From positions 1 through 64,000 of the forward strand of contig NZ_BMQC01000011.1 in NCBI RefSeq assembly GCF_014647915.1: a stretch of DNA of 64,000 nt, read 5' to 3'. The notes under the pieces were generated by a model. It was not told the origin of the DNA. It ran no database searches and saw only the letters and a list, made by a program, of their open reading frames with translations. How positions within the stretch are numbered: position 1 is the first letter of the stretch; every line of letters begins with the position of its first letter. A program made the position numbers and the translations under genes. Positions 45,835 through 63,308 of the stretch are shown here, piece by piece. Source of the stretch: Pilimelia terevasa (GTDB taxonomy: Bacteria; Actinomycetota; Actinomycetes; Mycobacteriales; Micromonosporaceae).

Positions 45835-46236
45835 GTACGTGGGGCCGTTTTCTAATCCTATGTGGGCGAATGCATGGCGGCTGACCTGCGGAAACGCTTC
45901 CCGCCCTTCAGGTCGCTGCGGCATCCGCGGGCCGTGACTGCTCGGCGCTTGCTCCGTTGACGCGACGCTGTCGAACGCCAGGATTCCGCGCCTCTGAGCG
46001 CAACTACTGCCGGTGACAGGTGAACCGGCCATCCCTCTGACCAGGACGGAAGCTCGTCGTCGTTCATCAACGCGGCGATGCGGACCGCGATCTTTCGCGG
46101 CAGTCAAGGCCCATCCTCGACCACCTAATCCACTTAGCACGGATGTACGAGGGCGGCACTCGGTCATACTCATGTGCCACCATCTGTCATCGAAGGAGCG
46201 CTTACTGTCGATCTTTCGGGTCGTTGGGGGCATCGC
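45835..46236. other. Junction sequence between the tRNA fragment and the Wadjet-like operon
   Basis: About 400 bp without a supported gene or any integrase. It should hold the operon promoter. A GAAGGAG at 46192-46198 looks like a ribosome site but has no start codon in the operon frame at the right distance. Confidence 0.5.
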
Positions 46237-47778
46237 TTGGTAGTACATGGGCAGCAGCCGGATCTGTTCACCGTCGAGGACGCCTCGGCGGAGCCGTCGA
46301 TGAACGAGGTTCGTTCCCCGGCTGGGGACGCCTCGGTCCGAGCGAGGTGGCGAGCGCTGGTCCTCACTGACCCGGTCGCTCGTCTGGTCCGCAACGCGGG
46401 ACATGCCGGTATCGACGACGATGTCTTCGATCTCAGACAGCTGGCCCTCGCCGCGATCGACGTGGCGGTCGCCTCGATGGGATTCGCCCGGCAGATCACC
46501 CTGGCGCAGCTCGTGGATACCGTTGCCGGGCTCGCCCGGCTGATGGACGAGCGGGACGACCCGGTGGCGGCGATTGAAGCTGCGCGGTGGGTGGTTCGGG
46601 GTCTACTCAACGACGCCGAGAATCAGGGCAAGTTCGTATACGTCTTCCACGACATACGTTCGACGCCGCGCCGGCGGGAGGAGTACGCCTTCAAATTGCT
46701 GTCGTTGCAGGACAGCCCGTCGGGCGCCGTCGTCCAGGCATCGCCCCAGGCGGTCATGCTCTACCTCAACGGCTTGAACCTCGATGTCGATGACGCTGAG
46801 GAAGCCCTATCGGTAGTATTGCGTCGCCAGTTGGAGGACCGCCGCTTTGAGGCTGCCGGCCGCACGGCGGAGACGGCCGAGCGTGCATCTGTGGCGATGG
46901 CGGCCACCCTCGCAGACATCATCGAGTCGACTCGCCGTGACGTGCGTTCAGCCGACTGGCTGGTGGATGTTCCTGCACGACTGGCCCGTGCTCGCAAGCA
47001 CGTGAAGGCGCGAATCGAAGCCGACGGCGAGGTGATCGGCCATGTCATGTCCGGTATCGATGCGGAGTCCGACGCCGCCGTCCGACGCGCGTCTGGTGAT
47101 TTAGTCGAGACGTTGCAGCGGATCCGCGAGGTGCACCTCGATCTCGCGTCGCGCGCCTCCGGCGCACGGGAGGTACTTCAGCAGGCGCAACTGCGCCAGG
47201 TGTTCAGCCGGCCTGTGCGGTTACGGCTGCTCAACGTCGAACGGGAGCTGTTCGAACCGATCCTGGCGATGGCCACCGCCGACGCGCAGGCCGTCTGCGA
47301 GGCGTTCACCGACCGCATTCTGGGGTTCCGGCTCCCACGGGTGCTGCACCTGGGCGATCTGGTGGACAGCCTGCTCACGCCGACGCGGCAGGTCACACCA
47401 GTCGAGTACGTCCCGGAGGACCCCGGCAACGCTGATGAGGCCGATGCCCAGGCGTACGCGCCAGAAGTCATCGCGGCGGCCACAAAGATTTTGCGTCGGG
47501 CCGAACATGCACCGGTGCCACTTAGCGAGCTTGTGGACGCCGCCACCGCCGTGGACCCCGAAGAGGTGGACGGAGCGGTCGAGGATCTCATCGAACTGGT
47601 CACCCTCGCAGCCCTGTGGGCCTACGCTCCCGACCTGCCCGAACCGGGAGATTCGCCCACCGCCGGCATCGACACGTTGATCGCGGCCCTGACAGCCGAG
47701 CGCACAGGCCACACGATCGACCGGCCCATGGTGTGGGGCAACCAGTTGATGATCTCCGCGAGTGGGGCGATCTCATGA
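46237..47778 (+). CDS. jetA: JetA-like subunit of a Wadjet-type condensin system (kleisin-like)
   Basis: This protein of about 513 residues is the first gene of a four-gene operon with the layout of Wadjet JetABCD. By position and architecture it should be the MukF/kleisin-type subunit bridging the SMC-like ATPase heads. The N-terminal half is helical (DPVARLVRNAGHAGIDDDVF). A segment FVYVFHDIRSTPRRREEYAF and a helical middle with many Ala/Arg/Glu follow, and the last 150 residues look like a winged-helix region. I do not see the usual DUF3375 start, so it is a divergent member. TTG 46237 with GGGGG seven bases ahead is chosen because codon bias is already good there; ATG 46300 (preceded by GGAG) and GTG 46174 are alternatives. 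The identification rests mainly on its neighbours. Confidence 0.68.
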   Translation: MVVHGQQPDLFTVEDASAEPSMNEVRSPAGDASVRARWRALVLTDPVARLVRNAGHAGIDDDVFDLRQLALAAIDVAVASMGFARQITLAQLVDTVAGLARLMDERDDPVAAIEAARWVVRGLLNDAENQGKFVYVFHDIRSTPRRREEYAFKLLSLQDSPSGAVVQASPQAVMLYLNGLNLDVDDAEEALSVVLRRQLEDRRFEAAGRTAETAERASVAMAATLADIIESTRRDVRSADWLVDVPARLARARKHVKARIEADGEVIGHVMSGIDAESDAAVRRASGDLVETLQRIREVHLDLASRASGAREVLQQAQLRQVFSRPVRLRLLNVERELFEPILAMATADAQAVCEAFTDRILGFRLPRVLHLGDLVDSLLTPTRQVTPVEYVPEDPGNADEADAQAYAPEVIAAATKILRRAEHAPVPLSELVDAATAVDPEEVDGAVEDLIELVTLAALWAYAPDLPEPGDSPTAGIDTLIAALTAERTGHTIDRPMVWGNQLMISASGAIS

Positions 47779-48497
47779 GCATTTCCCTGGAAGATGTCCG
47801 ACGCGCCGCCGAACTGGTGACCTTCGGGCTGCGCCACGGCGCCCGTCCCACTGACGGAAACCCCTACGGACTGCTGCTGCACCGCTACCGCACCGAGGCG
47901 GCCTTTAGTGACTTGGTCGACGTACTCGCCAGCGGACTCGGACTGGTCGTGCTCGGCACTCCGGCGCGCACCGGCATCGTCGTGACCACCCAACCCGGCA
48001 GCGTCTTCGCGATCCGCACCTCCGACCTGCGCAGCACCAACATGGGCCCGGAAGACAAGCTGGTGGCCGGTCTAGTAACCCTTGCGATCGCCGCGTACGC
48101 CTTCCCCCACCCGCGGGACCTAGACAGCACTGACGTCAAGATCGTCGAAGTTGTCGCCCTAGACGCGTTCATCCGCTCGGCAATTGCCCGTGTGACCGCC
48201 ACGACTGGCGAAGACGGCAACGACGCACAGGCGCGTCGGGCCGCCGACGTCTACGACCGGATGAGTGCCTTCCTACCCAAGGCGAATCAAGCCGGGCCCG
48301 CCAAGGGATGTACGCAGTGGGCCATCGGTGAGGTCCTCGGCTGGCTCGTCGACCGCGGAGCCGCCCGCCCCGCGCCGACCATGGGCGCCACCACGTACCA
48401 GCTCACCGATCGCTTCCGGCTCTTGGTCGCCGACATCGGCGGCGGTGAAGCGCTCGAAGCGCTGCGAACTGCCCGACGCGAATCGGAGACCACCTGA
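47775..48497 (+). CDS. jetB: JetB-like subunit of a Wadjet-type condensin system (MukE-like)
   Basis: This 240-residue protein lies between the JetA- and JetC-like genes, the place and size of the MukE-like subunit. The N-terminus is a helical region with strands (LVVLGTPARTGIVVTTQPG), which may be a small winged-helix domain. The C-terminal part (WAIGEVLGWLVDRGAARPAP then TTYQLTDRFRLLVADI) reads as a second winged helix, as expected for MukE-type proteins that sit on the kleisin. The start overlaps the previous stop as ATGA, and its TGA overlaps the next ATG by one base, so stoichiometric translation is likely. Sequence similarity alone would not identify it. Confidence 0.68.
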   Translation: MSISLEDVRRAAELVTFGLRHGARPTDGNPYGLLLHRYRTEAAFSDLVDVLASGLGLVVLGTPARTGIVVTTQPGSVFAIRTSDLRSTNMGPEDKLVAGLVTLAIAAYAFPHPRDLDSTDVKIVEVVALDAFIRSAIARVTATTGEDGNDAQARRAADVYDRMSAFLPKANQAGPAKGCTQWAIGEVLGWLVDRGAARPAPTMGATTYQLTDRFRLLVADIGGGEALEALRTARRESETT

Positions 48498-51400
48498 TGC
48501 CCCCTCCTGCCCGGCTGTGGAGGATCCGCCGGATCTACCTCGACCGCATCGGCGCCCCCGCCGCGCGCTTCCGCGACGTGTGGCTGGAGTTCGGCAGCCG
48601 CACTGGGAACCCGCTCGACACGATCCTGTGGATGCGCAATGGCGGTGGCAAATCCACACTGATCGCGTTGATCTGCGCATCGATCCGGCCCGCGCGTAAC
48701 GACTATCTCGCCACCGCAGAGACCGGTCGCCACCTCGAGGACTGCGTGCTGGGCGCCGACACTGCCCATATTGCCATCGAGTGGCAGGACCCCGAGGGAA
48801 CGCGCATGGTTACGGGCGCCGTCTACGAATGGACCGACCGTATCCAGCCCGCAGACCCGAACGCCTCCTGGGAACAGCTGCAACAACGCTGGTACGCGTT
48901 CACCCCTTCGCGCCCCGGGGCCGAGCTCGAGGTCCTGCCCTTCCACGACGACAACCAGCACCCGACGACGCTGAAGGCGTTCGCCGATGCGATCGCGGCC
49001 TTGCCGCCCGAGGCAGACGCTGTGGTGATCGACTACAAGGATCAAGGAAAGTGGACTGGCGCTCTGCAGGACCGTGGCCTGGATCCCGGTCTGTTTAGCG
49101 CCATCCTGAAGATCAACGCCAGTGAAGGCGGCATCGAGAAGCAGTTCAAGTTCTCCACGACCGACGAGTTCGTGCGTTACCTACTCAGCCTGGTCGGCGA
49201 CTCTGCAGCATCCCGCAGACTGTCCACCATGCTGGGCAAACACCGCGCCAGCATCGCCCGCCACCCGCGCCTGCGCACCGAACTCGACTTCACGCAAGAA
49301 GCTGTCGAACACCTCAAACTCCTCAAGGAAGACCACCGTCGTCTGCACGAAGCCGAGGAGGCCCGCGCCACGCAACGCCATCGTGCGCGCACCCTGGCCG
49401 CCTCCTTCTCCGCGGCAGCCGGCCACGCCCGCAATCAGGTTGCCCGCTTCAACACGGAAGCTGACGACCACCGCGAACGCCGCAAGCAGGCCGCCGACAA
49501 CGCCGACGCCTACGAGCGTCTGCACCGCGAGTACCACTGGTGGGCGGCGCATCTGCTCGACGAAGCCACTCGGGCCGCCAGCACAGAGGCTGATAAGACC
49601 GTCGCCGATCGTGACCGGCTACGCCAAGCGTGGCATTTGGTCCCCACCCTGGTCCAGCACGCGGAGCTGTCAGCGGAGCTCAAGGGCCTCCGCGAGCAGC
49701 AGACACGCGACGAAGCCGACGCCGCCCCCGTCCGTGAGCGCTACCAGCAGGCTGCCGCACAGTTGATCGCGGTGCTCGACCGATCTCGACGCGATCTCGA
49801 AACCGCCATCGACGCGAACGAGAAGACCGCCGCCGCTGCCGAGAAGGAACGACGGAAGGCCCAGGACGAGATCGGAGAGGCCGATCGTGAACTTGGTGCT
49901 CTGACTGCCGAGAGCACTCAGCTCACGCGAAGCATCACGGTGTTCGAGACAGCGGTGGCTAGAGCAGTCGCCGACGGGCACCTGCCTGCCGGCGCCCACC
50001 TAGCAGACACGCATACCGCGTGCGCCGACCAGCACGCCCGCCTGGTACGCGAGCTGGACGTGGATATGCCGGACGCGGCGAATGCGCTGGCCGAAAGGCG
50101 CTCGCCGATCGACGCTGAACACCGCGAGCTGGGCACGCAAATCGCCAACCTCAAGGTCGCGCTGCGCAAGCTCAACGACGAACGTCAGCCCCTGCTTGAC
50201 CAGATCAGCAGCCTCAGCAGGCACAACCGGCTTACTCTGCTGGCCCAGTCCGGCATCGTTGACCCGGTCGCCGAAAATGGCGCGCTCCAGCAAGCATTGA
50301 CTGATGCGATCATCGAGATCGACCGCGAGCGTATCGATCTGTCGGTCGAAGACGCCGACGATCGGCGAGCGCTGCGATCACTCGCTGGGCAGTCCGGTCT
50401 TCTCCCGGCTTCCCTCGACCTGACCCGCGCCGCCGACATCCTGCGCGAGCACAGCATTCCCGCGACCACCGGCTGGCACTACCTCGCCGACGCGGTCGCA
50501 CCGGCGTTGTGGCAGCGAGCCATCACCAGTGCGCCATCTCTAGTCGCCGGCCTTTTGGTGTACGACGCTGACGACCTAGGCGTCGCCCAGCAACGCCTGG
50601 ATGCTGCTGCGCTAACCCCCGGCACCACTGTTCAGGTCTCCACCACCCGCGCTCTGCAGGATGCCATCGACACCGACGCGGGCACCGTGGGCGGCTTCGT
50701 CGTTGCGCCAGCCGCAGCACTCTTTGACCGCGACGCTGTTACCGCGGAAGTCGAGCGCCGGGAGACGGCCAGCGCGACTCGCGCCGACCACCTTCGGCAG
50801 CTTGAGCTCGCCCGCGACCACGATAAGCAGCTGATCCACGAACTAGCGCTCCTGGCGACCACCTGCCCTCCGGGCCACCTCGAGCACCTCGCCGCCGAGC
50901 ACGACCGCATCACCGCAGCGGTCGCCGTGGCAGAGAAACGGCATAGCGAGCTCACCGCGCAGCTGGCCGACCTCGATGTCCGCGCTGCGCAGCTGAGCCG
51001 ACAACGTGAGGAGGCCATCAGGAAGGAAAGGATCATGAGTTCGCGCGTTCACATCCTCAGCGGCCTGGCCCAGCAACTGCCCGCTATCACGGAGCTGCGT
51101 ACCAGGCTGGCCCAGGTACCTGCCGCACGCGAAGCCCTCGAGGCTGCTAGGGCGCTCGCGGTGGCATCCGAACAGGAGTTGCGCACGGTCTCCGAGCGTG
51201 CGAATGGCGAGGTCAGCCGTGACCGGCGGGTCGTCGCGGGTTACATTCGCGAGGCCACTGAGTTCGCCGACGACGCAGGCGAGGCGACCGACGAGGCTGA
51301 GGCCGTCACCCTTGCGCAGGCGCGAAGCACGTTCGAGACCGCCCGCAAGGCCCATCAGATTCAAGCATCGCGCAGTGTGATCGCCGCCCAAATCGAGGGC

Positions 51401-52915
51401 GTGACCGGGCAGATGTCACGTCTAGCCGCCACCATGGCCGTAGCAGACCAGGACGTCCGAGGCCTGGCCAATGACCTTGCCGCAACGCCCGCCGCATCCG
51501 ACCCTGCCATGAGCGCTGAACTCACAGCGACCGCCGAGGCTCAATACGCCGAGGCGCTCGGCGAGCGGGCCGTCAAGCGCAGCGACGCGACGGAGGCCGA
51601 CACGGCACTGCAAAAGGCCAGCCGCACTCGCCCAGTCCGGGTCGAACTATTGCTGCCGGTCACCGAACCCGCCGACCTCGACCACGCCAGGCGTCTGCGG
51701 ACAGATGCCGAAGAGAACCAGGAGCGCCACCGCGCACAGCGACAGGCCGCAGCCGAAGCTCTCGGGCGCCTGGAAACGCGTATTGAGCAGCTGACGAACG
51801 ACGCTGACCAGTTCGACGGCCTCGCCGCGAGCCTTATGAGCGACGAGGACCAAGTCATGGACGTCACCGTACCGCCCGCCGCCTATGCGGGAGCCATCAC
51901 CGACGCCATGGCCGAGGCGGACACGGCGCGCCGAGAACTGACAACAGCCGATCGGAGCGTCGGCACCGCCCGCGCGGCCGTCACCGAGCGCGGCCACGTC
52001 GTCAGCCGCTGGTCCGCCGAGGCCCGCTTTGCTGCCGTCTCCGCTGAGGTGAAGGTTCGTTTCAGCGGCGGTGAACACACCAGCGGCTTGGCTGAGGAAG
52101 CGGACCATCTCATCGCGGAGATCACCCTTTATAGAGCGAATCTTCAAGGGCAGATCGATGAGGTGGAGCAGGACAAGGAGATCGTAGTGTCCGCGCTCTG
52201 CGAAGAAGCGCGCACGTGCCTTAAGATGCTGCAGCGCGCACAAACCCAGGCGCAGCTCCCGGCCGGAATCGGCGACCACCTCAAGAATCGCCGTTTCCTC
52301 GACGTCGGCCCCAAGCACGGCGTCGATACCAGCCCGCCGGTCATGCGCAGCCGCATCAGTGCCCTCGTCGATGGCCTCGTACAGAGCGAAGCCAAGACGC
52401 AGCCCGACGGCAAGACCCTGACCTGGCAGGCTGTCTCCGCCGCCGTCGGCGGCCCCGGGCACTTCAGGGCGCGCGTCCTCAAGCCGTCGACCAACCTCGC
52501 CGACGAACGGGAACCCGTCGAACGGATGGGCAAATGGTCCGGCGGCGAGAAGGTCACCATCAGCCTGTTGCTGTTCTGCATGCTCGCCCGCCTACGCGCC
52601 GCCAGCCGCGGCACCGATCATCCCGGTCTGGGTGTCCTGCCCATGGACAACCCCCTCGGTACCGTCAACTACGTCGCGTTCCTGGACCTGCAACGACGGG
52701 TCGCCGCCGCCAACGGCATTCAGCTCATCTTCCTGTCCGGCCTGGCCGACATGCGCGCCATCGGCCGCTTCCCCAACATCATCCGGATGAAGAACACACA
52801 CAACCACGATCGCACCTACGCCCAGGTCAGCGAGCGCAGCATCAACGACGACAACCTCGCCGCCGCCATCACCACCGCGAGGCTTACCTTCCCTCTGCAG
52901 GAGAGCCTGCTGTGA
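48497..52915 (+). CDS. jetC: JetC-like SMC/MukB-type coiled-coil ATPase
   Basis: This 1472-residue protein has the SMC plan. The N-terminal head carries a P-loop NGGGKSTL at residues 48-55. Long coiled coils follow (about 270-600 and 760-1280), with a non-coil hinge-like domain between them (SLVAGLLVYDADDLGVAQQR). The C-terminal head has the ABC signature KWSGGEKVT (Trp1347) and a Walker B segment GVLPMDNPLGTVN. Two deviations stand out: the first glycine of the GxNGxGKS loop is Met, and the residue after the Walker B Asp1384 is Asn1385 instead of the catalytic Glu. In Wadjet systems this subunit extrudes DNA loops and hands small circles to the nuclease JetD. Its start and end overlap both neighbours. 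Confidence 0.8.
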   Translation: MPPPARLWRIRRIYLDRIGAPAARFRDVWLEFGSRTGNPLDTILWMRNGGGKSTLIALICASIRPARNDYLATAETGRHLEDCVLGADTAHIAIEWQDPEGTRMVTGAVYEWTDRIQPADPNASWEQLQQRWYAFTPSRPGAELEVLPFHDDNQHPTTLKAFADAIAALPPEADAVVIDYKDQGKWTGALQDRGLDPGLFSAILKINASEGGIEKQFKFSTTDEFVRYLLSLVGDSAASRRLSTMLGKHRASIARHPRLRTELDFTQEAVEHLKLLKEDHRRLHEAEEARATQRHRARTLAASFSAAAGHARNQVARFNTEADDHRERRKQAADNADAYERLHREYHWWAAHLLDEATRAASTEADKTVADRDRLRQAWHLVPTLVQHAELSAELKGLREQQTRDEADAAPVRERYQQAAAQLIAVLDRSRRDLETAIDANEKTAAAAEKERRKAQDEIGEADRELGALTAESTQLTRSITVFETAVARAVADGHLPAGAHLADTHTACADQHARLVRELDVDMPDAANALAERRSPIDAEHRELGTQIANLKVALRKLNDERQPLLDQISSLSRHNRLTLLAQSGIVDPVAENGALQQALTDAIIEIDRERIDLSVEDADDRRALRSLAGQSGLLPASLDLTRAADILREHSIPATTGWHYLADAVAPALWQRAITSAPSLVAGLLVYDADDLGVAQQRLDAAALTPGTTVQVSTTRALQDAIDTDAGTVGGFVVAPAAALFDRDAVTAEVERRETASATRADHLRQLELARDHDKQLIHELALLATTCPPGHLEHLAAEHDRITAAVAVAEKRHSELTAQLADLDVRAAQLSRQREEAIRKERIMSSRVHILSGLAQQLPAITELRTRLAQVPAAREALEAARALAVASEQELRTVSERANGEVSRDRRVVAGYIREATEFADDAGEATDEAEAVTLAQARSTFETARKAHQIQASRSVIAAQIEGVTGQMSRLAATMAVADQDVRGLANDLAATPAASDPAMSAELTATAEAQYAEALGERAVKRSDATEADTALQKASRTRPVRVELLLPVTEPADLDHARRLRTDAEENQERHRAQRQAAAEALGRLETRIEQLTNDADQFDGLAASLMSDEDQVMDVTVPPAAYAGAITDAMAEADTARRELTTADRSVGTARAAVTERGHVVSRWSAEARFAAVSAEVKVRFSGGEHTSGLAEEADHLIAEITLYRANLQGQIDEVEQDKEIVVSALCEEARTCLKMLQRAQTQAQLPAGIGDHLKNRRFLDVGPKHGVDTSPPVMRSRISALVDGLVQSEAKTQPDGKTLTWQAVSAAVGGPGHFRARVLKPSTNLADEREPVERMGKWSGGEKVTISLLLFCMLARLRAASRGTDHPGLGVLPMDNPLGTVNYVAFLDLQRRVAAANGIQLIFLSGLADMRAIGRFPNIIRMKNTHNHDRTYAQVSERSINDDNLAAAITTARLTFPLQESLL

Positions 52916-54006
52916 TCGGCCTCAGCCCCCTAGCCCGTCACTTGGCCACAGCCGTCACCACCCACCGAACCGCCCGGATACCAGTCGGCGTCCTGCGGAC
53001 CGCGGCCCATGCCGCGGACCTCTCGCTCGCCGGCGACCCGGACGCACGCCGAAGACTCGCTGGCGCGCTCGACGAACTCGCCACCGTCGGCCTCATCCGA
53101 ACGCCAGCAGCAACAACCCGGGCTGCCTGGGACTTCACCCTCCAGCCACCACTACCCAACTGGGTGCAACGCCTCACCGCGCAACGGGCTCCAACAGCCC
53201 TCCCCGTGGCGGTCACGACCACCTGGCACGCACGACTATCCTGGGCCGCGGCGTTCGTCGCCAATGAACGCCCCACCGACAACGAACTCGCCCTGCTCCA
53301 CGCGGCGAACCGTTACCTCGCGGGGCACCGGCCGCCCGAGATTGTCCCGATGCGGGAGCGCTCCTGGGAGTTGCTGCACGAGGAGAAGGCCCTCGACGCC
53401 CTCAGCCGGGGACGACTGTTCGCCGCGAACCGCCTTACCTTGGCGGACCTGCATTGCGAGCGCATCCCCCTGCCCCTGGTCCAATGGCACATCGGCGACG
53501 GCTCCGCCGCACTTCTAGTCGAGAACCACACCACCGCCCACAGTCTGGCCTGCTGGCTGCCTGCCAGCGGCTCGGTCGGCACCGTCATCTGGACCGGAGG
53601 CAGCCAGCTCCCACAAATCCTTGCCTCCATGCCGGCAGACTGGTCACGCCCCCTGTCCTACTACGGGGACCTCGACTTGCGCGGTATCGAGATCGCCGCC
53701 GACGGCAACCATCACGCCCAAGCCCTCGGGCTGGGTCCGCTGACCCCGGCGTCGAACCTGTACCGCCTGCTACTCGACGTAGGCGTACCGGTCAAGCCCA
53801 AGACGCGCGCCAGGATCATCGCCGCCGACCACGCCATTCTCAACTGGTTCCCGCCGGACCTGCGGGCACCCATTGGCGTGATCATCGCGGCAGGCCAGCG
53901 CATCCCTCAGGAAGCCACGGGCCGCCGCCAACTGGCCAACATCGACCCGAGCGAGTTCGACCTCTGCGGCGCCCCGGCGAGTCCTCCATCCCCGCCGGGG
54001 CGTTGA
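52912..54006 (+). CDS. jetD: JetD-like TOPRIM-type nuclease (DUF2220-like)
   Basis: This 364-residue protein starts at a GTG overlapping the jetC stop (GTGA). The first 150 residues look like winged-helix DNA-binding segments (DARRRLAGALDELATVGLIR). The C-terminal domain fits the TOPRIM-like nuclease of Wadjet: a Glu in LLVENHTTAH (Glu204), the segment GTVIWTGGSQLPQIL, then the acidic motif SYYGDLDLRGIEIA with Asp253 and Asp255, and a helical tail. These acids would bind the metal that cleaves DNA. This is the clearest evidence that the operon is Wadjet-like and not a housekeeping MukBEF/MksBEF, which lacks such a gene. Confidence 0.8.
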   Translation: MIGLSPLARHLATAVTTHRTARIPVGVLRTAAHAADLSLAGDPDARRRLAGALDELATVGLIRTPAATTRAAWDFTLQPPLPNWVQRLTAQRAPTALPVAVTTTWHARLSWAAAFVANERPTDNELALLHAANRYLAGHRPPEIVPMRERSWELLHEEKALDALSRGRLFAANRLTLADLHCERIPLPLVQWHIGDGSAALLVENHTTAHSLACWLPASGSVGTVIWTGGSQLPQILASMPADWSRPLSYYGDLDLRGIEIAADGNHHAQALGLGPLTPASNLYRLLLDVGVPVKPKTRARIIAADHAILNWFPPDLRAPIGVIIAAGQRIPQEATGRRQLANIDPSEFDLCGAPASPPSPPGR

Positions 54007-54042
54007 TTACCGGCGGTCATCGGCCACGCAGCACGCCTTCCA

Positions 54043-57030
54043 TCACAGGTGCAGCCCTTCGGCATCTGCGGCGTCGGCGAGGGCGACCAGCTCGGCCTCA
54101 GTCGCCCACCTAAGGCTGCTGCCGACGGGTGATTTGGTGACCCGGATCAGGGAGGTTACATGCTGGGCGACGGCCAACATATGGCTGATAACGACCACTA
54201 GCCGTCCGGCGCTTGCCTGGGTGGACAGGGCATCGAGCGCCTCGGCCAGCGCCGTCTGGTCGAGTGTGCCGAAGCCCTCGTCTAGAAACAGCGCCTCAGC
54301 CCGGCCCCCGCTGCTGCTGGCATGTTCGACGAGTGCCAAGGCTAGAGCCAAGCTGGCTTGGAACGTCTCGCCTCCTGAAAGTGTTTTCACGTCACGCAGG
54401 CGGCAGGTGTGCTCGTCCCACACCTGGAAGTCGGTGCCGAACGCGAACCGCCCTAGGGACATACCGCGCAGGAGTCCGGTGGCGGTTCCCAGCAGCGTTT
54501 GCTGCCGCTCATGCACGGCGTCGGCCACGAACTTTCCGTCACCGAGGAGTTTCACCAGTGCATCGAGCCCGTCCACGTGTGGTTGCGCGATTTTGAGACG
54601 GGCCACGACGTCGTCGTACTCGACGGTGTTCGCGGTCGCCTCCTTGTAGGTGCGGTCGGCGACGGCCTTGCGCCCGATCGCATCGGTGAGTGCCTCGTCG
54701 AGCGGCTTACCGCCGGTCGGCGCCTCAGCGATGATCGCGCCCATCTGCTGCGCGCACCGGCGTCGAACCTCTCCGAACTGGGCGAGGTGATCGTCGGCGC
54801 AGGTCGCTGCGGTCAGCGCACTATCGGTGACCTGGGCAGCCCATTCGCAGTGGACGTTGACATCGGCCGTGACCTCGATGTCGGGTGCTTCCGGCAGTGC
54901 CAGCGCCGCCGCGATCGCAACCTGCACGGTTCGGAGCTTCAGCACGGCCTGGCTGGCGGCCGTGGCAGGCTTGGTGACGTGTTCGGTGCGGCGCACGCCG
55001 AGTTCTCGACGTTGTAGGTCGATTTTCTCGAGTTCACCGTCGAGTGCCTCGATCATCCTCCAATGTTCGGCGAGTTTTTCCTGCTCGCGGCCGGCGGCTC
55101 TTTGCTGCGCGACCACTGCGTCCGGGGTGGGCCCGTCGGGCCGATATGGCTCCGGCACCTCTTTGATGAGCGCGGCGATCCCCTCCTGGACCCTCGTGAG
55201 CTCATTTTTCTCGCGGTCCACCGCGGCGGCGTCCCGGTCGACCTGCCTGCCGAGAGCTTCGGCCTTGGCGGCGGCGCCAATCTTGCTCTTGCGCAGTGTC
55301 ACGGCCGCCTCAGCGAGGGCAGCTTGCTCGTCGGTGGCCCGCTGCAGTGCAGACAGGTGTTCGGCGAGGATCGCGTCATCCTCGGACTCGAGTGGGAAGG
55401 GTCCGAGTTGCGCGGTGAGCGCGTCGATCGCCTTCTGCGCGCGCGCGTCATGCGCCGTAAGGTCTTGTGTTGCCCGGCCTGCGCGGACTTGGGCGTCACT
55501 GTGAGCGGCGACCGCTTCATTGACCGCCTCACGGGCCTTCTTAGCCTTCCGGTGAGCGTCATCTAGGGTACGCTCGGCGGCCTTGAGATCCGGCGCGTTG
55601 GGCGGGGTGAACCCGTCAGGCAAAGGGTGTTGGCACACCGAACATGCGTCGCCGGGCGCCAAGCCGTGGGCGGCGTGGGCGGCGGCATTGGCACGCCGCC
55701 GGTCCTGCAGGGCCGCATCGGCGGCGGCGGCCTCGCGCTCGACGTCGGCGACGTTGTCCTGTGCCTTCCGCAGCTCTGCAGCAGCCCGCGCCGCTGCAAC
55801 GTCGAAACGGTGCTTGGTGTCGGCCAAGTCCTGACGCTGCGCGGCGAGGCGGCGGGCGTCGGCGAGGCCGGTGCGAAGCGTCGCTAGACCGCTCTTGAGG
55901 CCGTTGACGGGGCCAGTGCGGTCGGAGAGGGCGGCTTCCGCCCGTTCCAGGAGCGGCTCGTGCCGCATGTCTTCGGCAACGGCCGCCGCGGCGTCTACTC
56001 GCAGCCTTTCGAGGGCCTGCTCCTCCGTTCGGTGGCGTTCGGTGCGTTGCGCCGCGCTGATGATGCGTTCGTGTAGTTGGGACAGTTGCCCCACCGCGGA
56101 CGTGAGGGCGTTGGCCTGCGAGCCACCGGGCCTGAAGTCACCCAGCCCAGTGAGAAGTTCTTCCCGCCGGGTACGCAACGGCTCGGCGCGCTCGGCGAGC
56201 TCGGTCTCCTGGGCGGTGATCTCCCGGTCCAGGCCGGCTAGCGTACGCAGCTGCTGCGGCGCATCGGTCTGGGCCGCTTTCGACAGAGCCTCGCGCATGC
56301 TGGTGAGAGCGGCGTGCCGCTCGCCTGCTCGCTTCTCCTCCTCGAGGAGGCCGGCGACGGCTCCCTGCGCTGTTCTGAGGCGGGAGAGCTGCTCGGTGAT
56401 CGTTTCCGCCTCCGTGGCGGCAGTTTTGGCGGTCGCGCGAGGGTCCCCGAGTGCCGTCTTGCGGGTACGTAGCTCCACGATGGTAGGCGTGAGTGCGTCG
56501 CGCTGTTGGCGCGCGCGGTCGACGACCGTGTCGAGGATGTCGAGGCCGAGCAGACCTTTGAGTATCTTGGCGCGTTCACCGCCGCTGGCGTGCAGCAGTT
56601 GCTCAAACTTCCCTTGGGGCAGGAGCACCGAGCGGAGGAACGTCTTGTTGTCCATGCCGACGAGGTCAACGATGCGAGGGGTGACGAGCTTGCCGTGGAC
56701 GACCTCGTCTCCGTCGAGCGACTCCAGCTTGTGGACCGTCCCGGTTGGTTTCCTCGAGAGTTGCCGGGTCACCCGCCATGGGCGTCCGCGTGCCTCGAAG
56801 TCCATTGTCACGGCCAGGGCGCCGTCGCCGCCGTCCGCGATCAAAACCTTCGAAGACTGTGTTTCCCAGGTCGCGGTGCCGAAGAGCGCGAAGTTGATCG
56901 CCATCAAGATGGTGGACTTGCCGGCGCCGGTGTCGCCTATGATCCCGACGAGGTCGTGACCGCGGAAATCGATGTGCTGCCGGCGGATGTAGGAGCGGAA
57001 TCCGGAGAAGGTGAGCTGCAGCGGCTTCAT
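54043..57030 (-). CDS. sbcC: SbcC/Rad50-type ATPase
   Basis: This 995-residue protein has a Rad50 layout. The P-loop is GDTGAGKST (residues 32-40), a Q-loop region LLPQGKFEQLLHA follows, then long coiled coils around a zinc hook CSVCQHPLP (Cys463 and Cys466). The second head carries the signature TLSGGETFQASLALALALVE and the Walker B motif EALFLDEGFGTLD. With SbcD it should form an ATP-gated nuclease complex acting on DNA ends and hairpins. Its ATG overlaps the sbcD stop by four bases. At nearly 1000 residues it is longer than many actinomycete SbcC proteins of 800-1000. As the last gene of a six-gene operon it may be a system-specific paralogue; a second host copy would settle this. Confidence 0.93.
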   Translation of the reverse strand: MKPLQLTFSGFRSYIRRQHIDFRGHDLVGIIGDTGAGKSTILMAINFALFGTATWETQSSKVLIADGGDGALAVTMDFEARGRPWRVTRQLSRKPTGTVHKLESLDGDEVVHGKLVTPRIVDLVGMDNKTFLRSVLLPQGKFEQLLHASGGERAKILKGLLGLDILDTVVDRARQQRDALTPTIVELRTRKTALGDPRATAKTAATEAETITEQLSRLRTAQGAVAGLLEEEKRAGERHAALTSMREALSKAAQTDAPQQLRTLAGLDREITAQETELAERAEPLRTRREELLTGLGDFRPGGSQANALTSAVGQLSQLHERIISAAQRTERHRTEEQALERLRVDAAAAVAEDMRHEPLLERAEAALSDRTGPVNGLKSGLATLRTGLADARRLAAQRQDLADTKHRFDVAAARAAAELRKAQDNVADVEREAAAADAALQDRRRANAAAHAAHGLAPGDACSVCQHPLPDGFTPPNAPDLKAAERTLDDAHRKAKKAREAVNEAVAAHSDAQVRAGRATQDLTAHDARAQKAIDALTAQLGPFPLESEDDAILAEHLSALQRATDEQAALAEAAVTLRKSKIGAAAKAEALGRQVDRDAAAVDREKNELTRVQEGIAALIKEVPEPYRPDGPTPDAVVAQQRAAGREQEKLAEHWRMIEALDGELEKIDLQRRELGVRRTEHVTKPATAASQAVLKLRTVQVAIAAALALPEAPDIEVTADVNVHCEWAAQVTDSALTAATCADDHLAQFGEVRRRCAQQMGAIIAEAPTGGKPLDEALTDAIGRKAVADRTYKEATANTVEYDDVVARLKIAQPHVDGLDALVKLLGDGKFVADAVHERQQTLLGTATGLLRGMSLGRFAFGTDFQVWDEHTCRLRDVKTLSGGETFQASLALALALVEHASSSGGRAEALFLDEGFGTLDQTALAEALDALSTQASAGRLVVVISHMLAVAQHVTSLIRVTKSPVGSSLRWATEAELVALADAADAEGLHL

Positions 57031-58250
57031 GCGACACCACCAGCCGGGACGCGGAGCTGTTCCTCGGCCGGGAAGTAGGGGTCGCGCTCGTCCTGCTCCG
57101 CGGCAAGGAACTCGGCCATCATGGCGGTGACCGTGCCGATCGGCGCGGTGCCTGCGCCGTGCTCGTTCACGTACTGCTCGAATGACTCGAGCAGGCTGCG
57201 CTGCACCTGTGTCTGCCCAGGTTCCACGACGTCGTTGCGGGGCTGGGCGCCGTCGACGCGTTGTTGGACGTCCAACACTCGGGCCTTTGCGAGCAGGGTG
57301 TGGACGCGTTGCGCAAGGGCGGGTTCATAAGCCGGCGTGTGCACCGTGACGAGGCACAGTGCGTCACCGATGGCGCCAGCCTGTTGCTGTAGCTCGTCCC
57401 AGGTGCCGTCGAACTTGATCAGTTCTCGGCCTCCGCGCAGCGGGACCTCCTCGCATACGGCCGCTTTGCCGGGCTCGACGGTCACGAGGGTCACGCTCTT
57501 GCGTTGCCCGGCTTCGCCGAAGTCCAGCGGGATCGGCGATCCCGCGTAGCGTCCGACGACCCGGCCGGGCAGCTGTTGCGGCTGATGGATGTGTCCGAAG
57601 GCCGCGTAGTCGACGGCGGGGATGGCGTCGGGGTCTACGGCGAACTCGTCGGTGGTGTGCCGGGCCCGCTCGCTACCCGCGAGTCCGGCGCCGGTGACGT
57701 GCATGTGCGCGGTGAATAGGGTGACCTCGGACCGCGGGTCCAACCGGTCCGCGAGCCCAGCGGCGATCCGGGCCTGGAGGTCTGCGAGCTGTTCACGGTA
57801 GGTGCTCGACCACGGCTGGGCGTCGGGGATGGTGGTCAGGCGCTGGGGATAGATGAACGGTAGAACCCCGACCCTGGCTCGGGTTCCGTCGCGCCCCGGC
57901 ACGATCAGATAGTCGCCGTTCGCGCCGAGCGGGTGACTGACGAAATGCAGCTGGTGCAGCCGGCCGAGCTTGTCGAGGTAGCGGTGCAGCGCGACGTTGT
58001 CGTGGTTGCCCGCGACCACGATCGTCGGGGCGATCGCTGCCAGTTCGGCGAGCCAGCCGACGACGCGTTCGATGTCGTTGTGGCTGACCCTGGAGTGGTC
58101 GATCAGGTCCCCGGAGTGCAGGATGCCGTCAGGTCGGCGTTGCTTGGCGATCTCAATGATCTCCGACATGGCGTCGACGAGGTCGGGCATCCGGGGCTCG
58201 TTGTAGGTCGTCCGGCCGGCATGCCAGTCGGAGGTGTGCAGAAAGAGCAT
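57027..58250 (-). CDS. sbcD: SbcD/Mre11-type nuclease
   Basis: This metallophosphatase-fold nuclease of 407 residues (from ATG 58250) is the partner of SbcC. The five metal-binding blocks are all present: TSDWHAG, SGDLIDHS, VVAGNHDNVAL, FTAHMHV and FGHIHQPQ, so the exonuclease site looks intact. ATG 58250 is preferred over ATG 58268 because AAAGG sits ten bases before it and because family members begin at FLHTSDWH. The C-terminal part, about 120 residues longer than the core, includes a helix-rich capping segment. It overlaps sbcC by four bases and follows the helicase gene after 58 bases, the only real gap in the lower half of the operon. Confidence 0.93.
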   Translation of the reverse strand: MLFLHTSDWHAGRTTYNEPRMPDLVDAMSEIIEIAKQRRPDGILHSGDLIDHSRVSHNDIERVVGWLAELAAIAPTIVVAGNHDNVALHRYLDKLGRLHQLHFVSHPLGANGDYLIVPGRDGTRARVGVLPFIYPQRLTTIPDAQPWSSTYREQLADLQARIAAGLADRLDPRSEVTLFTAHMHVTGAGLAGSERARHTTDEFAVDPDAIPAVDYAAFGHIHQPQQLPGRVVGRYAGSPIPLDFGEAGQRKSVTLVTVEPGKAAVCEEVPLRGGRELIKFDGTWDELQQQAGAIGDALCLVTVHTPAYEPALAQRVHTLLAKARVLDVQQRVDGAQPRNDVVEPGQTQVQRSLLESFEQYVNEHGAGTAPIGTVTAMMAEFLAAEQDERDPYFPAEEQLRVPAGGVA

Positions 58251-58308
58251 GGCGATGGCGCCTTTCATCCGGCTACGTCGCGGCGCAGCCTGAGGAATTC
58301 GAGGGCAG

Positions 58309-59637
58309 TTAGTGGTGTACGCGGACGCGGTGGTTGGACAGGTGGGCGAGAACGGCCTGGTTGGCCTCCCACCCGTCGGGGAACTTGATGAAGTCCTTCA
58401 GGTGCACGGGTTCGGTGTCGGGGTGGGCGTCCAGGAGCTCGGGGATGCCGCGGCGCCCGACCACGATGCAGGCTTGACGGTGGCGGGAGGTCAGCACGCA
58501 TAGACGGCCGGGGGTGAGGTGGAATGGTGTCGCGTCGATCCGACCGGACAGTGGATGCAGGATCACGGTGATGTCGAACTCTGCGCCTTGCAGCCGATTT
58601 GCGGTGTCTACCCGGATCCCGTCCGCAATTTCGCCACGGTTCTGCAATGCTCGGGTGATGGCGGCGACCTGGTCGCGGTGCGCTGCGCCAACGGCGATCC
58701 GCGCGGCGGTGAGCCGCCGGCCGCCAGGGGCTTGCTCGCAGACCGTCTCGGTACCGCGTTGCAGGAGCCGAACAGCTACGTCCGCAGTGGCGGTCACCGT
58801 CTCAGTGTCGGTGCGCAACGTGTTGCGATGCGGTAGCTCGAGGAAACCCCATCCGGTGCCTGCAGCGAGGTCGATCACTTCATCGACTGCGGCGCGTCGG
58901 ATCCCGACAGTTGGCACGTGCATCGCGCGTTCGTCGTCGCGCGTGCCGGGGACGAACTCGGAATACGGGTAGAAGGCCGTCTTGATGAGGCGTGCGGCGC
59001 TAGCTGGCAGCCGCCAGGTCACTGGAAGTTCGTGCGGAACGATTTCCGGGTTGTTGCGCAGCAGCACGGCAACTGCGCTCTGCATGGGGTCCCAGGGCAG
59101 ACCGGCCCACCGTTCCCCGTCGATGGGGGAGAACGGATCGAGCTGTCCGGGGTCGCCGACGAACAGCATCCGCTTGAACAGCGGCACGATCAGCAGAAGC
59201 ATGTCCGAGCGCATCTGGTATGCCTCGTCGACGATGGCCCACGGCCAGGTGCGGACGCTCTGCACCTGCGCCCACTTGGCGGCGGTGCCGACCACGACTC
59301 GGCAATCTGGCAGGTCATCGACGCGGGATGCGACTTGAATGTTGGGCAGGAGCAGCATGGGCGACGGCAGGTATCCGTCGCGGGACAGCCGTCCGATGAT
59401 CAGGCCAGGGAGCCGAGTAGCGATCTTGGCGACGAGGTCGTCCACCTGCGCGTTGGTTTGCGCGACGACCACGACCGTGTCGCCGCCCATGGCGATCTCA
59501 GCCGCAACGCGCCCCACCAGCGTGGACTTGCCGGCGCCGGGTGGCGAGTCGACAACGACACCGCGGTGACCGCCGCTAGTGAACGCGTCGAGGATCTCTG
59601 CCATCTTGATCTCCGCACGGTCTTGCGGCGCGATCAT
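58309..59637 (-). CDS. Superfamily 1 DNA/RNA helicase (Upf1/Dna2-like core)
   Basis: This 442-residue protein shows SF1 motifs: I PPGAGKST (residues 32-39), Ia VVAQTNAQVDDL, II AIVDEAYQM, III FVGDPGQLDPF, IV-like VTWRLP, V VDTANRLQGAEFDITVI and VI LTSRHRQACIVVG. The motif III GDPGQLDP and motif V D-x-x-Q-G form place it near the Upf1/Dna2/RecD-like branch, but it lacks the large insertions and accessory domains of full-length Dna2 or Upf1. Start and the preceding stop overlap as ATGA, so it is translated with the 496-residue protein upstream. It is likely the DNA-unwinding motor of this operon. Confidence 0.88.
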   Translation of the reverse strand: MIAPQDRAEIKMAEILDAFTSGGHRGVVVDSPPGAGKSTLVGRVAAEIAMGGDTVVVVAQTNAQVDDLVAKIATRLPGLIIGRLSRDGYLPSPMLLLPNIQVASRVDDLPDCRVVVGTAAKWAQVQSVRTWPWAIVDEAYQMRSDMLLLIVPLFKRMLFVGDPGQLDPFSPIDGERWAGLPWDPMQSAVAVLLRNNPEIVPHELPVTWRLPASAARLIKTAFYPYSEFVPGTRDDERAMHVPTVGIRRAAVDEVIDLAAGTGWGFLELPHRNTLRTDTETVTATADVAVRLLQRGTETVCEQAPGGRRLTAARIAVGAAHRDQVAAITRALQNRGEIADGIRVDTANRLQGAEFDITVILHPLSGRIDATPFHLTPGRLCVLTSRHRQACIVVGRRGIPELLDAHPDTEPVHLKDFIKFPDGWEANQAVLAHLSNHRVRVHH

Positions 59638-61124
59638 GACCAGTCCTCCGCAGCGTCCTCAACAGCAGGGGCTGAGTCAGGCGCCGGGCCCCCATGCGTC
59701 CATGGGGTTTCCTCCCGTGCCGGCCACGGCCGGCGCCGCACGAACGTCTCCGTCACGCTCGTGTAGGTGACGTCCTCGCCGAGCGCGGGAACGGAGCCAG
59801 GCTTTGCGGTTTGGCCGCTGCCCATCCGGTTCTGTAGTTCAAGTGCGACACGCCAGCCGTCTTCGGTCTCGGCGACCGACTCGATGACCGCCTGCTGGCC
59901 GTTGCGAGCCGGGTCGTATACGTGCTGCCCCACGTCGAAGTGGATGTGGTCACCAGTCGCCACCAGAACTAGTGGACGCAGCACACTGCGACGTAGCCCG
60001 GGCACCCGGCGAGTCGCGTCAACCTTGACGACCTGCCCGGAGAATGCCTCACCAGTGAGGCGATGGTCCGCTATGACCAGCGGGTCGTCGTAGGCGCGCT
60101 GTGCTTCGAAGGCAGCCTTTCGCTGTTCCAGCTCGGCGAGTCGATGGGCGCTGCGGCCGGCGTTGTCGCGCTTGGCCTGCGGTCGGCCGCCATCGGCGAC
60201 GTACCGGTGGAACGAGGTGAACCGGTCACGTTGCTGTTCCCAGCGTTTCGGCACCCGAGGCGCCTCGGGCACATCGGCCAGAAGGCCGATCGCGGTCCAC
60301 ACCAGCTCCCAGGTTGGGCGCATCTGCTCCTCCAGCATGGCGGTCAAGCGCTGGTGAACAGCTCTGTGCGCCGCCGGGGTACGCGCGGTCGCCAAGTCCC
60401 GCAATGCGGGTTCCAAGAAGAGCCGGTCGAACGTCGGATCGGTAGCCGGACCGGCCGGTGGACACAGCTGCGGATCCTCCGCTCGGCTGACGGCCGAGGC
60501 GACGTCCATCCCCTCGGGCGGGTCGAGCCAGGCTATCTGGGCGGCAAGGTTGCCGTCTTCGAGATCGCTTTGCCCGGTCGCCCACACGGCGGCCACTGCC
60601 CGGGTCGCAGCGATCAGCGCGCCGGTGTCAGCGAACTCGGCCTGCTCGGCGAACCAGGTCAGCCAGATGCCGAGTTCGCGCACCTTCTTCGGCACAGCCC
60701 ACGGTCCTTCGGTCTGACGTAGCCTCGTCATCCGACCCAGCGTGCGGACGAACTCGACTCCTGCCGGGTTTGGAACCCAGATCTGCGGGGCGTCGACGAC
60801 CCTGACCCGCGCATTCGGCCCCGAACTGGTGGCCTGCGTCCGCTGCGCGGCTGTCTCGATGGGGAACAGCAGCTCGCTGGCGAGCCGGCCGGCGAAGTTC
60901 AAGCGCTCCGCCCGTTCACGGGGCTGGCGGGTCACAATCAGGTTCGGCCGGGCACGGTCGCTACCGACCATCGCCGCGAGCGGCGCGTTGGTCTCGCCAG
61001 CCAACGTGAGCGGCACGATCACGATCGGCGTCGACGATATGTACAGGTGCCGGAACACCGTCAGTCGCTGCGGGGCCATCGAGTACACCGCCAACGCCTT
61101 GGCCAAGGAAGTCAGCGCGCTCAT
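59634..61124 (-). CDS. Protein of unknown family between nuclease and helicase
   Basis: This 496-residue protein has no domain I recognise. The N-terminus (SLAKALAVYSMAPQRLTVFR) and the beta-rich stretch STPIVIVPLTLAGETN form a compact start. The middle is helical with LGIWLTWFAEQAEFADTG and many conserved-looking Trp. The C-terminal 130 residues (LVIADHRLTGEAFSGQVVKV to DGWRVALELQNRM) are beta-rich and look like an OB-fold or small barrel. It overlaps both neighbours by four bases, so it should work in a complex with them. A tempting reading is that it supplies the barrel and stalk parts missing from the short helicase. Confidence 0.7.
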   Translation of the reverse strand: MSALTSLAKALAVYSMAPQRLTVFRHLYISSTPIVIVPLTLAGETNAPLAAMVGSDRARPNLIVTRQPRERAERLNFAGRLASELLFPIETAAQRTQATSSGPNARVRVVDAPQIWVPNPAGVEFVRTLGRMTRLRQTEGPWAVPKKVRELGIWLTWFAEQAEFADTGALIAATRAVAAVWATGQSDLEDGNLAAQIAWLDPPEGMDVASAVSRAEDPQLCPPAGPATDPTFDRLFLEPALRDLATARTPAAHRAVHQRLTAMLEEQMRPTWELVWTAIGLLADVPEAPRVPKRWEQQRDRFTSFHRYVADGGRPQAKRDNAGRSAHRLAELEQRKAAFEAQRAYDDPLVIADHRLTGEAFSGQVVKVDATRRVPGLRRSVLRPLVLVATGDHIHFDVGQHVYDPARNGQQAVIESVAETEDGWRVALELQNRMGSGQTAKPGSVPALGEDVTYTSVTETFVRRRPWPAREETPWTHGGPAPDSAPAVEDAAEDWS

Positions 61125-62251: not shown

Positions 62252-62318
62252 CTCAACCTTTGAAGGACGGGTCCGGATCTTCGCGGGAACCGGGCCGTCG
62301 GATAGGGGGAAGTGGAAG

Positions 62319-63116: not shown

Positions 63117-63136
63117 GGCGGAGACCGTATCACGAA

Positions 63137-63154
63137 TTCCAAAGTCTTCCAAAG
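63137..63154. promoter_or_regulatory. Two direct repeats TTCCAAAG with 10-bp spacing upstream of the six-gene operon
   Basis: TTCCAAAG occurs at 63137-63144 and again at 63147-63154, one helical turn apart, about 20-40 bases before the first start codon on the minus strand. This is a typical geometry for an operator bound cooperatively. It may overlap the promoter. No regulator is identified, although the first operon gene is a candidate. Confidence 0.5.
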
Positions 63155-63308
63155 ATCTCCAGACTTGCCGGAGAGTCTGCGAGGACGCTATGGCTAGCCG
63201 GCGCCGGACGGGGCACACCGAATCCGCGCGGTTCTAGGTGTTTGGCAGCAGCGTGCGCTGCGGGCGGCAGCTCGCCGCCGCACCGGGCCGGGCGCCTAAC
63301 CTGTGAGG

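What the first reader, a model, noticed from the sequence alone, without database searches (positions are those of the whole stretch)
46237..54006. Divergent Wadjet-type (JetABCD-like) plasmid-restriction operon
Four coupled genes encode kleisin-like, MukE-like, 1472-residue SMC-like and TOPRIM-nuclease proteins. The JetD-like GDLD motif and the SMC heads are clear, but the JetA- and JetB-like proteins do not show the usual DUF3375/DUF4194 features I would expect, and JetC is unusually long. It may represent a subtype that standard models miss.
Basis: partly seen in the sequence, partly recalled or inferred. Interest (0 to 1): 0.7.

Follow-up and report, generated by a model that had tools for sequence, protein, structure and literature searches.

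The report
Plasmid-cutting operon with DNA-end-processing partner
The four genes are an ordinary type III Wadjet system, a bacterial machine thought to cut small circular DNA, but they travel with a six-gene DNA-end-processing cluster that also stands beside the other two Wadjet types, which suggests an undescribed two-part defence.

Summary
The operon at 46237-54006 is real, intact and a Wadjet, but not a new subtype: JetA, JetC and JetD score 361, 1026 and 260 bits against type III models. JetB scores only 18 bits, yet those models miss 5 of 8 JetB proteins of type III-like loci. Lacking DUF3375/DUF4194 and having a ~1450-residue JetC are normal for type III.

The unexpected part is next door. 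Jet is convergent with six genes at 54043-63116: SbcC-like, SbcD-like, SF1 helicase, a 496-aa unknown, a putative Fe-S/PD-(D/E)XK nuclease and a ~265-aa unknown. Both operons form one ~17 kb block, 84-86% identical to one in Salinispora pacifica with different surroundings.

Of 24 loci with the sbcCD-containing module, 19 have a Wadjet beside them: type I 7, type II 7, type III 5; of 49 loci of the module without sbcCD, none (one exception, L063, in another sample). Near-identical modules (97-98% DNA) carry different Wadjet types. Nine searches of the held library showed no report of this.

Reading: a Wadjet plus an exchangeable end-resection-like partner. Association is shown; functional coupling is inferred.

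The parts
46130..63161 (.). Block shared with Salinispora pacifica CNR114 (both operons), different surroundings there
   Evidence: 84.4% DNA identity over 46130-62912; 86.3% over 61299-63161
46237..47778 (+). JetA (type III, kleisin-like); start uncertain, GTG at 46174 possible
   Evidence: PADLOC JetA3 361 bits
47775..48497 (+). JetB (type III, MukE/KITE-like by position and alignment)
   Evidence: JetB3 18 bits; aligns with 15 JetB rows at 26-94% identity
48497..52915 (+). JetC (type III SMC ATPase, 1472 aa; Walker B reads Asp-Asn)
   Evidence: JetC3 1026 bits; motifs
52912..54006 (+). JetD (TOPRIM nuclease)
   Evidence: JetD3 260 bits; Pfam JetD_C; E and DxD kept in 18 of 18 rows
54043..57030 (-). 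SbcC-like (Rad50-type) ATPase of the partner operon
   Evidence: AAA_23, SbcC_Walker_B; TIGR00618 189.7 bits, under its cut-off
57027..58268 (-). SbcD-like (Mre11-type) metallophosphoesterase
   Evidence: Metallophos; TIGR00619 107.6 bits, cut-off 77.65
58309..59637 (-). SF1 (AAA_11/AAA_12) helicase
   Evidence: Pfam; motifs conserved in 24 of 24 sbcCD-containing loci
59634..61124 (-). 496-aa protein of unknown function
   Evidence: No Pfam, PADLOC or NCBIfam match; conserved next to the helicase and nuclease genes
61121..62398 (-). Putative Fe-S PD-(D/E)XK nuclease (Cas4/AddB-like by motif only); true start probably further in
   Evidence: C83, E206-P-D208, E222-x-K224, C351/C355/C361; no profile match
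62319..63116 (-). ~265-aa protein of unknown function
   Evidence: Conserved in the module

Best explanation
A complete type III Wadjet (JetABCD) sits in one horizontally moved ~17 kb block, convergent with a six-gene DNA-end-processing operon. Proposed working: JetA (kleisin), JetB (KITE/MukE-like) and JetC (SMC ATPase) extrude loops on small circular DNA, and completed extrusion lets the TOPRIM nuclease JetD cut it; this is the published model for type I Wadjet and is inferred here. The partner operon then acts on the cut product: the SbcC/SbcD-like pair (Rad50/Mre11) recognises and opens the ends, and the SF1 helicase with the putative Fe-S PD-(D/E)XK nuclease resects and destroys the linear DNA, so that it cannot be rejoined or replicate. 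The 496-aa and ~265-aa proteins would be scaffold or regulatory subunits. Shown: gene content, intact motifs, repeated and exchangeable linkage of the sbcCD-containing module to Wadjet types I, II and III. Inferred: the order of action, the nuclease assignment by motif, any physical contact. Type III identity alone: about 0.95; functional coupling of the two operons: about 0.55.
For: Type III profiles; JetC and JetD motifs conserved. Block 46130-63161 shared with S. pacifica CNR114 at 84.4-86.3% DNA identity, flanks unrelated but for one 39-base match. A Wadjet beside 19 of 24 sbcCD-containing modules and 0 of 49 without sbcCD (Fisher p 2.7e-13, which ignores relatedness). Gap between BLAST matches under 420 bp in 17 of 19. 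Types confirmed by profiles for the window, L208 and L189 (type II), L244 (type II) and L117 (type I); the other 14 rest on BLAST. Wadjet type needs 7 changes on the module tree, 2 being the fewest possible. L205 (type II) and L204/L206 (type I) share 97-98% DNA over 5.5 kb of module, ending at the helicase/JetA junction. Nuclease motif residues and helicase Walker A/B kept in 24 of 24 sbcCD-containing loci. SbcD-like over its cut-off.
Against: 5 of 24 sbcCD-containing modules show no Wadjet in the fetched flanks. Modules without sbcCD stand without Wadjet in 49 of 49 loci, so the core can serve something else; L063, found from the Jet side, is an exception (4-gene module ~2 kb from a JetABC without JetD). 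In the wider set of 73 the nuclease residues are less constant (E222 in 63, K224 in 60). Relatives of the ~265-aa protein stand on 5 annotated Streptomyces plasmids without a gene annotated as Wadjet or any other module gene recognised; the 496-aa searches did not list these records. Wadjets are common in Actinobacteria (42% of genomes) and enriched at Streptomyces chromosome ends (PMC10482375, passages), which could bring neighbours together. 31 of 36 type III-like loci show no module gene in the flanks held. No profile matched the nuclease and its structure model failed.
Confidence: 0.6

Rival explanations
1. Plain type III Wadjet in a defence island: the six-gene operon is a separate, self-sufficient defence or repair system, and the two are neighbours only because both gather in mobile, terminal or island regions.
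For: Modules without sbcCD lack Wadjet in 49 of 49 loci and 5 of 24 with sbcCD lack it too; 31 of 36 type III-like loci show no module gene; Wadjets are enriched at Streptomyces chromosome ends (PMC10482375, passages), and several modules lie near contig ends. Weak PADLOC matches of the SbcC-like protein to mad3 (75 bits) and of the helicase to MkoA (47 bits) show likeness to parts of other defence systems.
Against: Gaps under 420 bp in 17 of 19, often on one strand; type I or type II at the same place after near-identical modules. Eight neighbours of four Wadjet-less modules matched no PADLOC model at E<=0.001; a ninth, a UvrD-like helicase, matched RTasHel/GajB models at 47 bits.
Confidence: 0.3
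2. The partner operon protects the host: it repairs or clears accidental JetD cuts in the cell's own DNA instead of destroying the plasmid.
For: SbcCD and SF1 helicase/nuclease pairs serve double-strand-break repair in other organisms (recalled); linkage to all three Wadjet types, which share the JetD cutter.
Against: 31 of 36 type III-like loci show no module gene; nothing here measures self-damage.
Confidence: 0.08
3. A chromosome-organising, MksBEF-like complex and not a defence system.
For: 17 of 36 fetched type III-like loci have JetA, JetB and a long JetC but no JetD hit, among them the window JetC's nearest fetched relatives after S. pacifica (44-47% identity); flanks are conserved between genomes in two groups.
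Against: The window operon has JetD with its acidic residues and lies in a moved block.
Confidence: 0.03

Closest known systems
Wadjet type III (JetABCD; PADLOC JetA3/B3/C3/D3)
   Same: Gene order A-B-C-D with overlapping ends; JetA3, JetC3 and JetD3 profiles; JetC of ~1450-1500 residues; TOPRIM acidic residues in JetD.
   Different: JetB barely scores (18 bits). Joined to a six-gene partner operon of which 31 of 36 fetched type III-like loci show no gene.
Wadjet types I and II
   Same: Same SMC-plus-TOPRIM plan; both stand beside the same six-gene module elsewhere.
   Different: No DUF3375/DUF4194 (I) or DUF2397/DUF2398 (II) in the window proteins. Walker B is Asp-Asn in JetC3, Asp-Glu in the two type I and Asp-Glu or Asp-Asp in the two type II proteins read here.
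SbcCD / Mre11-Rad50
   Same: SbcD-like over the SbcD cut-off; SbcC-like with Walker A, zinc-hook CxxC, LSGGE and Asp-Glu Walker B.
   Different: SbcC-like scores 190 bits against a cut-off of 478.5; of 61 genomes searched only the own one had a match at E<=1e-100, so it is a divergent version.
Dna2-type helicase-nuclease and Cas4/AddB Fe-S nucleases
   Same: One Cys upstream and three downstream around E-P-D and E-x-K motifs, next to an SF1 helicase gene; the parallel is recalled, not tested by profile.
   Different: Helicase and nuclease are separate genes; no profile matched the nuclease.
MksBEF without nuclease (e.g. Pseudomonas aeruginosa)
   Same: Condensin-like three-subunit core; [quoted passage not shown]
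   Different: JetD is present here.

Membership tests
Wadjet type III | Four-gene operon in the order A-B-C-D | tested here: met
   Overlapping ORFs at 46237-54006
Wadjet type III | JetA, JetC and JetD match type III profiles | tested here: met
   361, 1026 and 260 bits
Wadjet type III | JetB matches a type III profile | tested here: inconclusive
   18.3-18.7 bits to PDLC00573; 5 of 8 JetB proteins tested give nothing at E<=0.01; aligns with 15 JetB rows at 26-94% identity
Wadjet type III | JetD TOPRIM acidic residues (E, DxD) | tested here: met
   Kept in 18 of 18 rows
Wadjet type III | Restricts small circular plasmids | not testable with these tools
   Needs an experiment
Wadjet type I | DUF3375 JetA and DUF4194 JetB | tested here: not met
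   No such Pfam hit in JetA or JetB; no DUF3375 match at E<=0.001 in the own genome
MksBEF without nuclease | No JetD/MksG nuclease | tested here: not met
   JetD3 260 bits
SbcCD | SbcD over the curated cut-off | tested here: met
   TIGR00619 107.6 against 77.65 bits
SbcCD | SbcC over the curated cut-off | tested here: not met
   TIGR00618 189.7 against 478.5 bits
Dna2 | Fe-S nuclease and SF1 helicase in one protein | tested here: not met
   Two separate genes, 58309-59637 and 61121-62398
Cas4/AddB-type Fe-S PD-(D/E)XK nuclease | Profile match | tested here: not met
   No Pfam, PADLOC or NCBIfam match; motif pattern only

The most novel reading that the evidence does not exclude
Wadjet has a dedicated, exchangeable partner: a six-gene Mre11-Rad50 plus helicase-nuclease module that serves all three Wadjet types and finishes what JetD begins, a two-stage 'cut, then resect' system against plasmids. 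The Wadjet type plugged in is swapped while the partner stays.
Probability: 0.5. Interest if true: 0.8.

Novelty: new variant of a known kind. Interest (0 to 1): 0.6.

Why it matters
What becomes of a plasmid after Wadjet cuts it, and whether cutting alone is enough, did not complete in the passages I read. A natural partner that joins a condensin-like cutter to an Mre11-Rad50-like and helicase-nuclease set would give a direct genetic handle on that question. Exchange of Wadjet types next to one partner would show that the coupling is to cleavage and not to one Wadjet lineage. Separately, the Asp-Asn Walker B of type III JetC raises the question of how, or how fast, type III hydrolyses ATP.

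Tried and rejected
New Wadjet subtype: rejected on profiles. Ordinary housekeeping sbcCD as the neighbour: unlikely, since the SbcC-like protein had no match at E<=1e-100 in 60 other genomes of the family. Integration at tRNA-Phe: the window holds the first 43 bases of a tRNA-Phe (45792-45834) with its upstream DNA, but the 3' half was not found in the window and the shared block begins ~300 bases later, so no att pair was shown. Solved structures: the JetA and JetB profiles found no relevant chain and JetC only coiled-coil chains; JetD found MksG and JetD weakly (E 0.013 and 0.054); the nuclease, 496-aa and helicase queries found none that I trust. Structure prediction of the putative nuclease and the 496-aa protein from two-row alignments gave mean pLDDT 35.5 and 37.4, which says nothing, so no fold search was run. 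A viral-contig scan for the 496-aa protein found no relative. The type I JetC model PDLC00519 found nothing in 121 genomes or the controls; type I sequences came from plasmids instead. PADLOC found nothing at E<=0.001 for 8 neighbours of four Wadjet-less modules (ORFs picked by length, so some may not be genes); a ninth matched helicase models weakly.
Full report
1. The observation. The four genes are present, complete and overlapping on the + strand: JetA 46237-47778, JetB 47775-48497, JetC 48497-52915, JetD 52912-54006. PADLOC calls JetA3 (361 bits), JetC3 (1026 bits over residues 7-1462) and JetD3 (260 bits); JetB3 reaches only 18 bits. Pfam finds no family over its cut-off in JetA, JetB or JetC, and JetD_C in JetD. 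So the missing DUF3375 and DUF4194 are real, and so is the long JetC, but both belong to type III. PADLOC gives nothing at E<=0.01 for 5 of 8 JetB proteins of type III-like loci, while 15 such rows align with the window JetB at 26-94% identity. 'Standard models miss it' therefore holds for JetB alone.

2. Catalytic parts. In 33 aligned JetC rows (the window and 32 of the 36 type III-like loci L011 and L057-L091; L089, L090 and L091 were left out as partial and L088 gave no JetC hit) the Walker A Lys and the signature Ser are invariant. Walker B reads Asp-Asn in all 33, where the catalytic Glu is expected. Two type I proteins (L117, L118) have Asp-Glu and two type II proteins (L208, L244) Asp-Glu and Asp-Asp. 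The review PMC10586767 (passages) reports a Glu-to-Gln change at this place in Lamassu's LmuB; I made no dedicated literature search on type III. JetD keeps E and DxD in 18 of 18 rows.

3. JetD-less relatives. Of the 36 type III-like loci, 17 have JetA, JetB and a long JetC but no JetD hit (L057-L063, L073, L074, L077-L079, L081-L085; L081 ends with its contig just behind JetC). Two more show no JetD hit but are not counted: L089, with a JetC fragment, and L076, with only a JetC hit. A search with one JetD3 model at E<=1e-5 found none in 16 of the 17 genomes; the 17th, G414, has one at its other type III locus. Flanks are conserved between genomes in two groups. The window JetC's nearest fetched relatives after S. 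pacifica (80%) are of this kind, 44-47% identical. [quoted passage not shown] that is inference.

4. The block. One alignment joins window 46130-62912 to L011 (Salinispora pacifica CNR114) at 84.4%; another carries it to 63161 at 86.3%. In the S. pacifica DNA held on either side nothing else aligned but one 39-base match at window 63523-63561. Left of the block stand the first 43 bases of a tRNA-Phe (45792-45834); an intact copy lies on contig C10. The block holds jetABCD and, convergent with it, a - strand operon: SbcC-like 54043-57030, SbcD-like 57027-58268, SF1 helicase 58309-59637, a 496-aa unknown 59634-61124, a putative nuclease 61121-62398 and a ~265-aa unknown 62319-63116. PADLOC gives the SbcC-like protein mad3 (75 bits) and weaker LmuB hits, the helicase MkoA (47 bits), and the last three nothing; NCBIfam gives the helicase 49.5 bits to a PLuB-system helicase model whose cut-off is 999. 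The putative nuclease shows C83, E206-P-D208, E222-x-K224 and C351-x3-C355-x5-C361, the layout that I recall for Cas4/AddB-type Fe-S nucleases; no profile matched it. That Mre11-Rad50 and Dna2 carry out end resection together in eukaryotes is recalled, and suggested the working model.

5. The partner elsewhere. The 496-aa and helicase proteins on plasmids led to Streptomyces records NZ_CP108489 and NZ_CP027023, where the same genes run straight into a type I Wadjet (profiles for the first). A profile of the 496-aa protein matched 70 of 394 genomes of the class; I fetched 40 places, preferring genomes outside the commonest genus and second copies, so that sample is not random. A profile of the ~265-aa protein matched 33 of 392 genomes of one genus, at 36 places: 28 were fetched anew, five were already held, and three duplicate copies in the same genomes were left out. 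With the window, L011, the two plasmids and Nonomuraea (L119) this makes 73 loci. Extra flanks were fetched only for loci with sbcCD: seven regions for five loci, twelve regions for twelve loci (one locus is in both), and one region for S. pacifica. The comparison therefore favours the sbcCD group; but 17 of the 19 Wadjets found lie within 420 bp of the module.

6. The count. In one search, 24 of the 73 loci have sbcC or sbcD, and 19 of these have a Wadjet: type I 7 (G907, two plasmids, G1287, G1235, G1041, G1302), type II 7 (G050, G403, G867, G982, G971, G1240, G1135), type III 5 (window, S. pacifica, G803, G1033, G1080). Five show none: G1038, G1176, G1053, G998, G1072. Of 29 four-gene and 20 three-gene loci none has one. 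Fisher's p is 2.7e-13 but ignores relatedness. Types were confirmed by profiles in five (window; L208 and two proteins of L189; L244 and L117); the other 14 rest on BLAST. G403 scored weakly by BLAST but strongly by profiles (552, 349, 1061 and 392 bits); its gap is ~2 kb by my arithmetic. G907 has a 2.45 kb gap that holds an SF2 helicase. JetB3 was not detected by BLAST in G803, G1033 and G1080, and G803 also shows no JetA: its contig ends within JetC. sbcC is absent and sbcD shortened in G971, and both are in pieces in NZ_CP027023.

7. Swapping. On a tree of three partner proteins from 34 of the 73 loci (the 24 with sbcCD and 10 of the 29 four-gene ones; 7 of 31 inner branches open, and G867 and G403 among the long end branches) the Wadjet type needs 7 changes, where 2 is the least possible. 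The sharpest case: L205 (type II) shares 97.3 and 98.0% DNA with L206 and L204 (both type I) over 5.5 kb of module, and the match ends at the helicase/JetA junction; L204 and L206 share 97.1% over 16.5 kb, their type I operons included. The Wadjet stands after the helicase on the same strand (seven type I, five type II), after sbcC on the same strand (type III G1033, G1080; type II G867, G403), or convergent with sbcC (window, S. pacifica, G803).

8. Against a specific partnership. From the Wadjet side only 5 of 36 type III-like loci show module genes in the flanks held: L011; L088 (helicase, sbcD, sbcC, then JetA, one strand); L063 (four-gene version ~2 kb from a JetD-less JetABC, an exception to the 0-of-49 count, which came from another sample); L065 and L066 (three genes ~3 kb away, cut by the end of the locus). 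I could not fetch more of these flanks. The ~265-aa protein also has relatives on 5 annotated Streptomyces plasmids, where I saw no gene annotated as Wadjet within 15 kb; the 496-aa searches and the type III JetC search did not list these records. A sixth carries no annotation and was not examined. In the 73 loci the nuclease residues are less constant than in the 24 (E222 in 63, K224 in 60). Wadjets are common in Actinobacteria and enriched at Streptomyces chromosome ends (PMC10482375, passages).

9. Literature. Nine searches of the held library: Wadjet with type III (30 of 38 papers listed); with JetC and JetD; with MksBEF and Streptomyces (none); with SbcCD; with helicase, Cas4 and accessory; with Dna2; with Mre11, nuclease and operon; with linear plasmid and Streptomyces; and JetABCD, exonuclease and degradation of linearized, two of three (8 of 12 listed). 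I read passages only, of seven papers: PMC12647877, PMC12287153, PMC10586767, PMC10123090, PMC8565338, PMC12624138, PMC10482375. I saw no report of this partner module. The library lacks most subscription papers and all preprints.

10. Verdict. The finding as given is an ordinary type III Wadjet. The locus is of interest for the six-gene partner: repeated, tight and exchangeable linkage to all three Wadjet types is shown; a joint cut-then-resect mechanism is the best-supported reading but is inferred.

Noticed in passing
L057-L063, L073, L074, L077-L079, L081-L085: Type III-like JetABC operons without a JetD hit, with flanks conserved between genomes in two groups: possible domesticated, MksBEF-like complexes of the type III branch.
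   Followed up: partly
window 48497-52915, JetC residues 1384-1385: Walker B of type III JetC is Asp-Asn in 33 of 33 rows, where the two type I proteins read have Asp-Glu.
   Followed up: partly
window 45792-45834: First 43 bases of a tRNA-Phe gene with its upstream DNA, truncated; an intact copy is on another contig.
   Followed up: partly
L164, L166, L168, L180-L188 and others: Widespread three- and four-gene versions of the partner without sbcCD or Wadjet; the own genome has a second, three-gene copy on contig C2 (L168).
   Followed up: partly
L200, L178, L203, L213, L214: Several modules lie close to contig ends, in three genomes (G1235, G998, G1072) at both ends of one contig, as in terminal repeats of linear chromosomes.
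   Followed up: no
L247-L251: Relatives of the ~265-aa protein on linear Streptomyces plasmids, followed by a ~620-710-aa and a ~190-aa hypothetical protein; in four of the five a HU-family gene stands directly before.
   Followed up: no
L178 5594-7843, L179 12010-14250, L242 3.7-5.9 kb: A ~750-aa SF2 helicase with helicase-associated domains recurs beside some module/Wadjet loci.
   Followed up: no
L120, L121: Linear plasmids of Streptomyces and Rhodococcus carry type III-like JetC genes; linear DNA escapes Wadjet (PMC10586767, passages), so such plasmids could use it against circular rivals.
   Followed up: no
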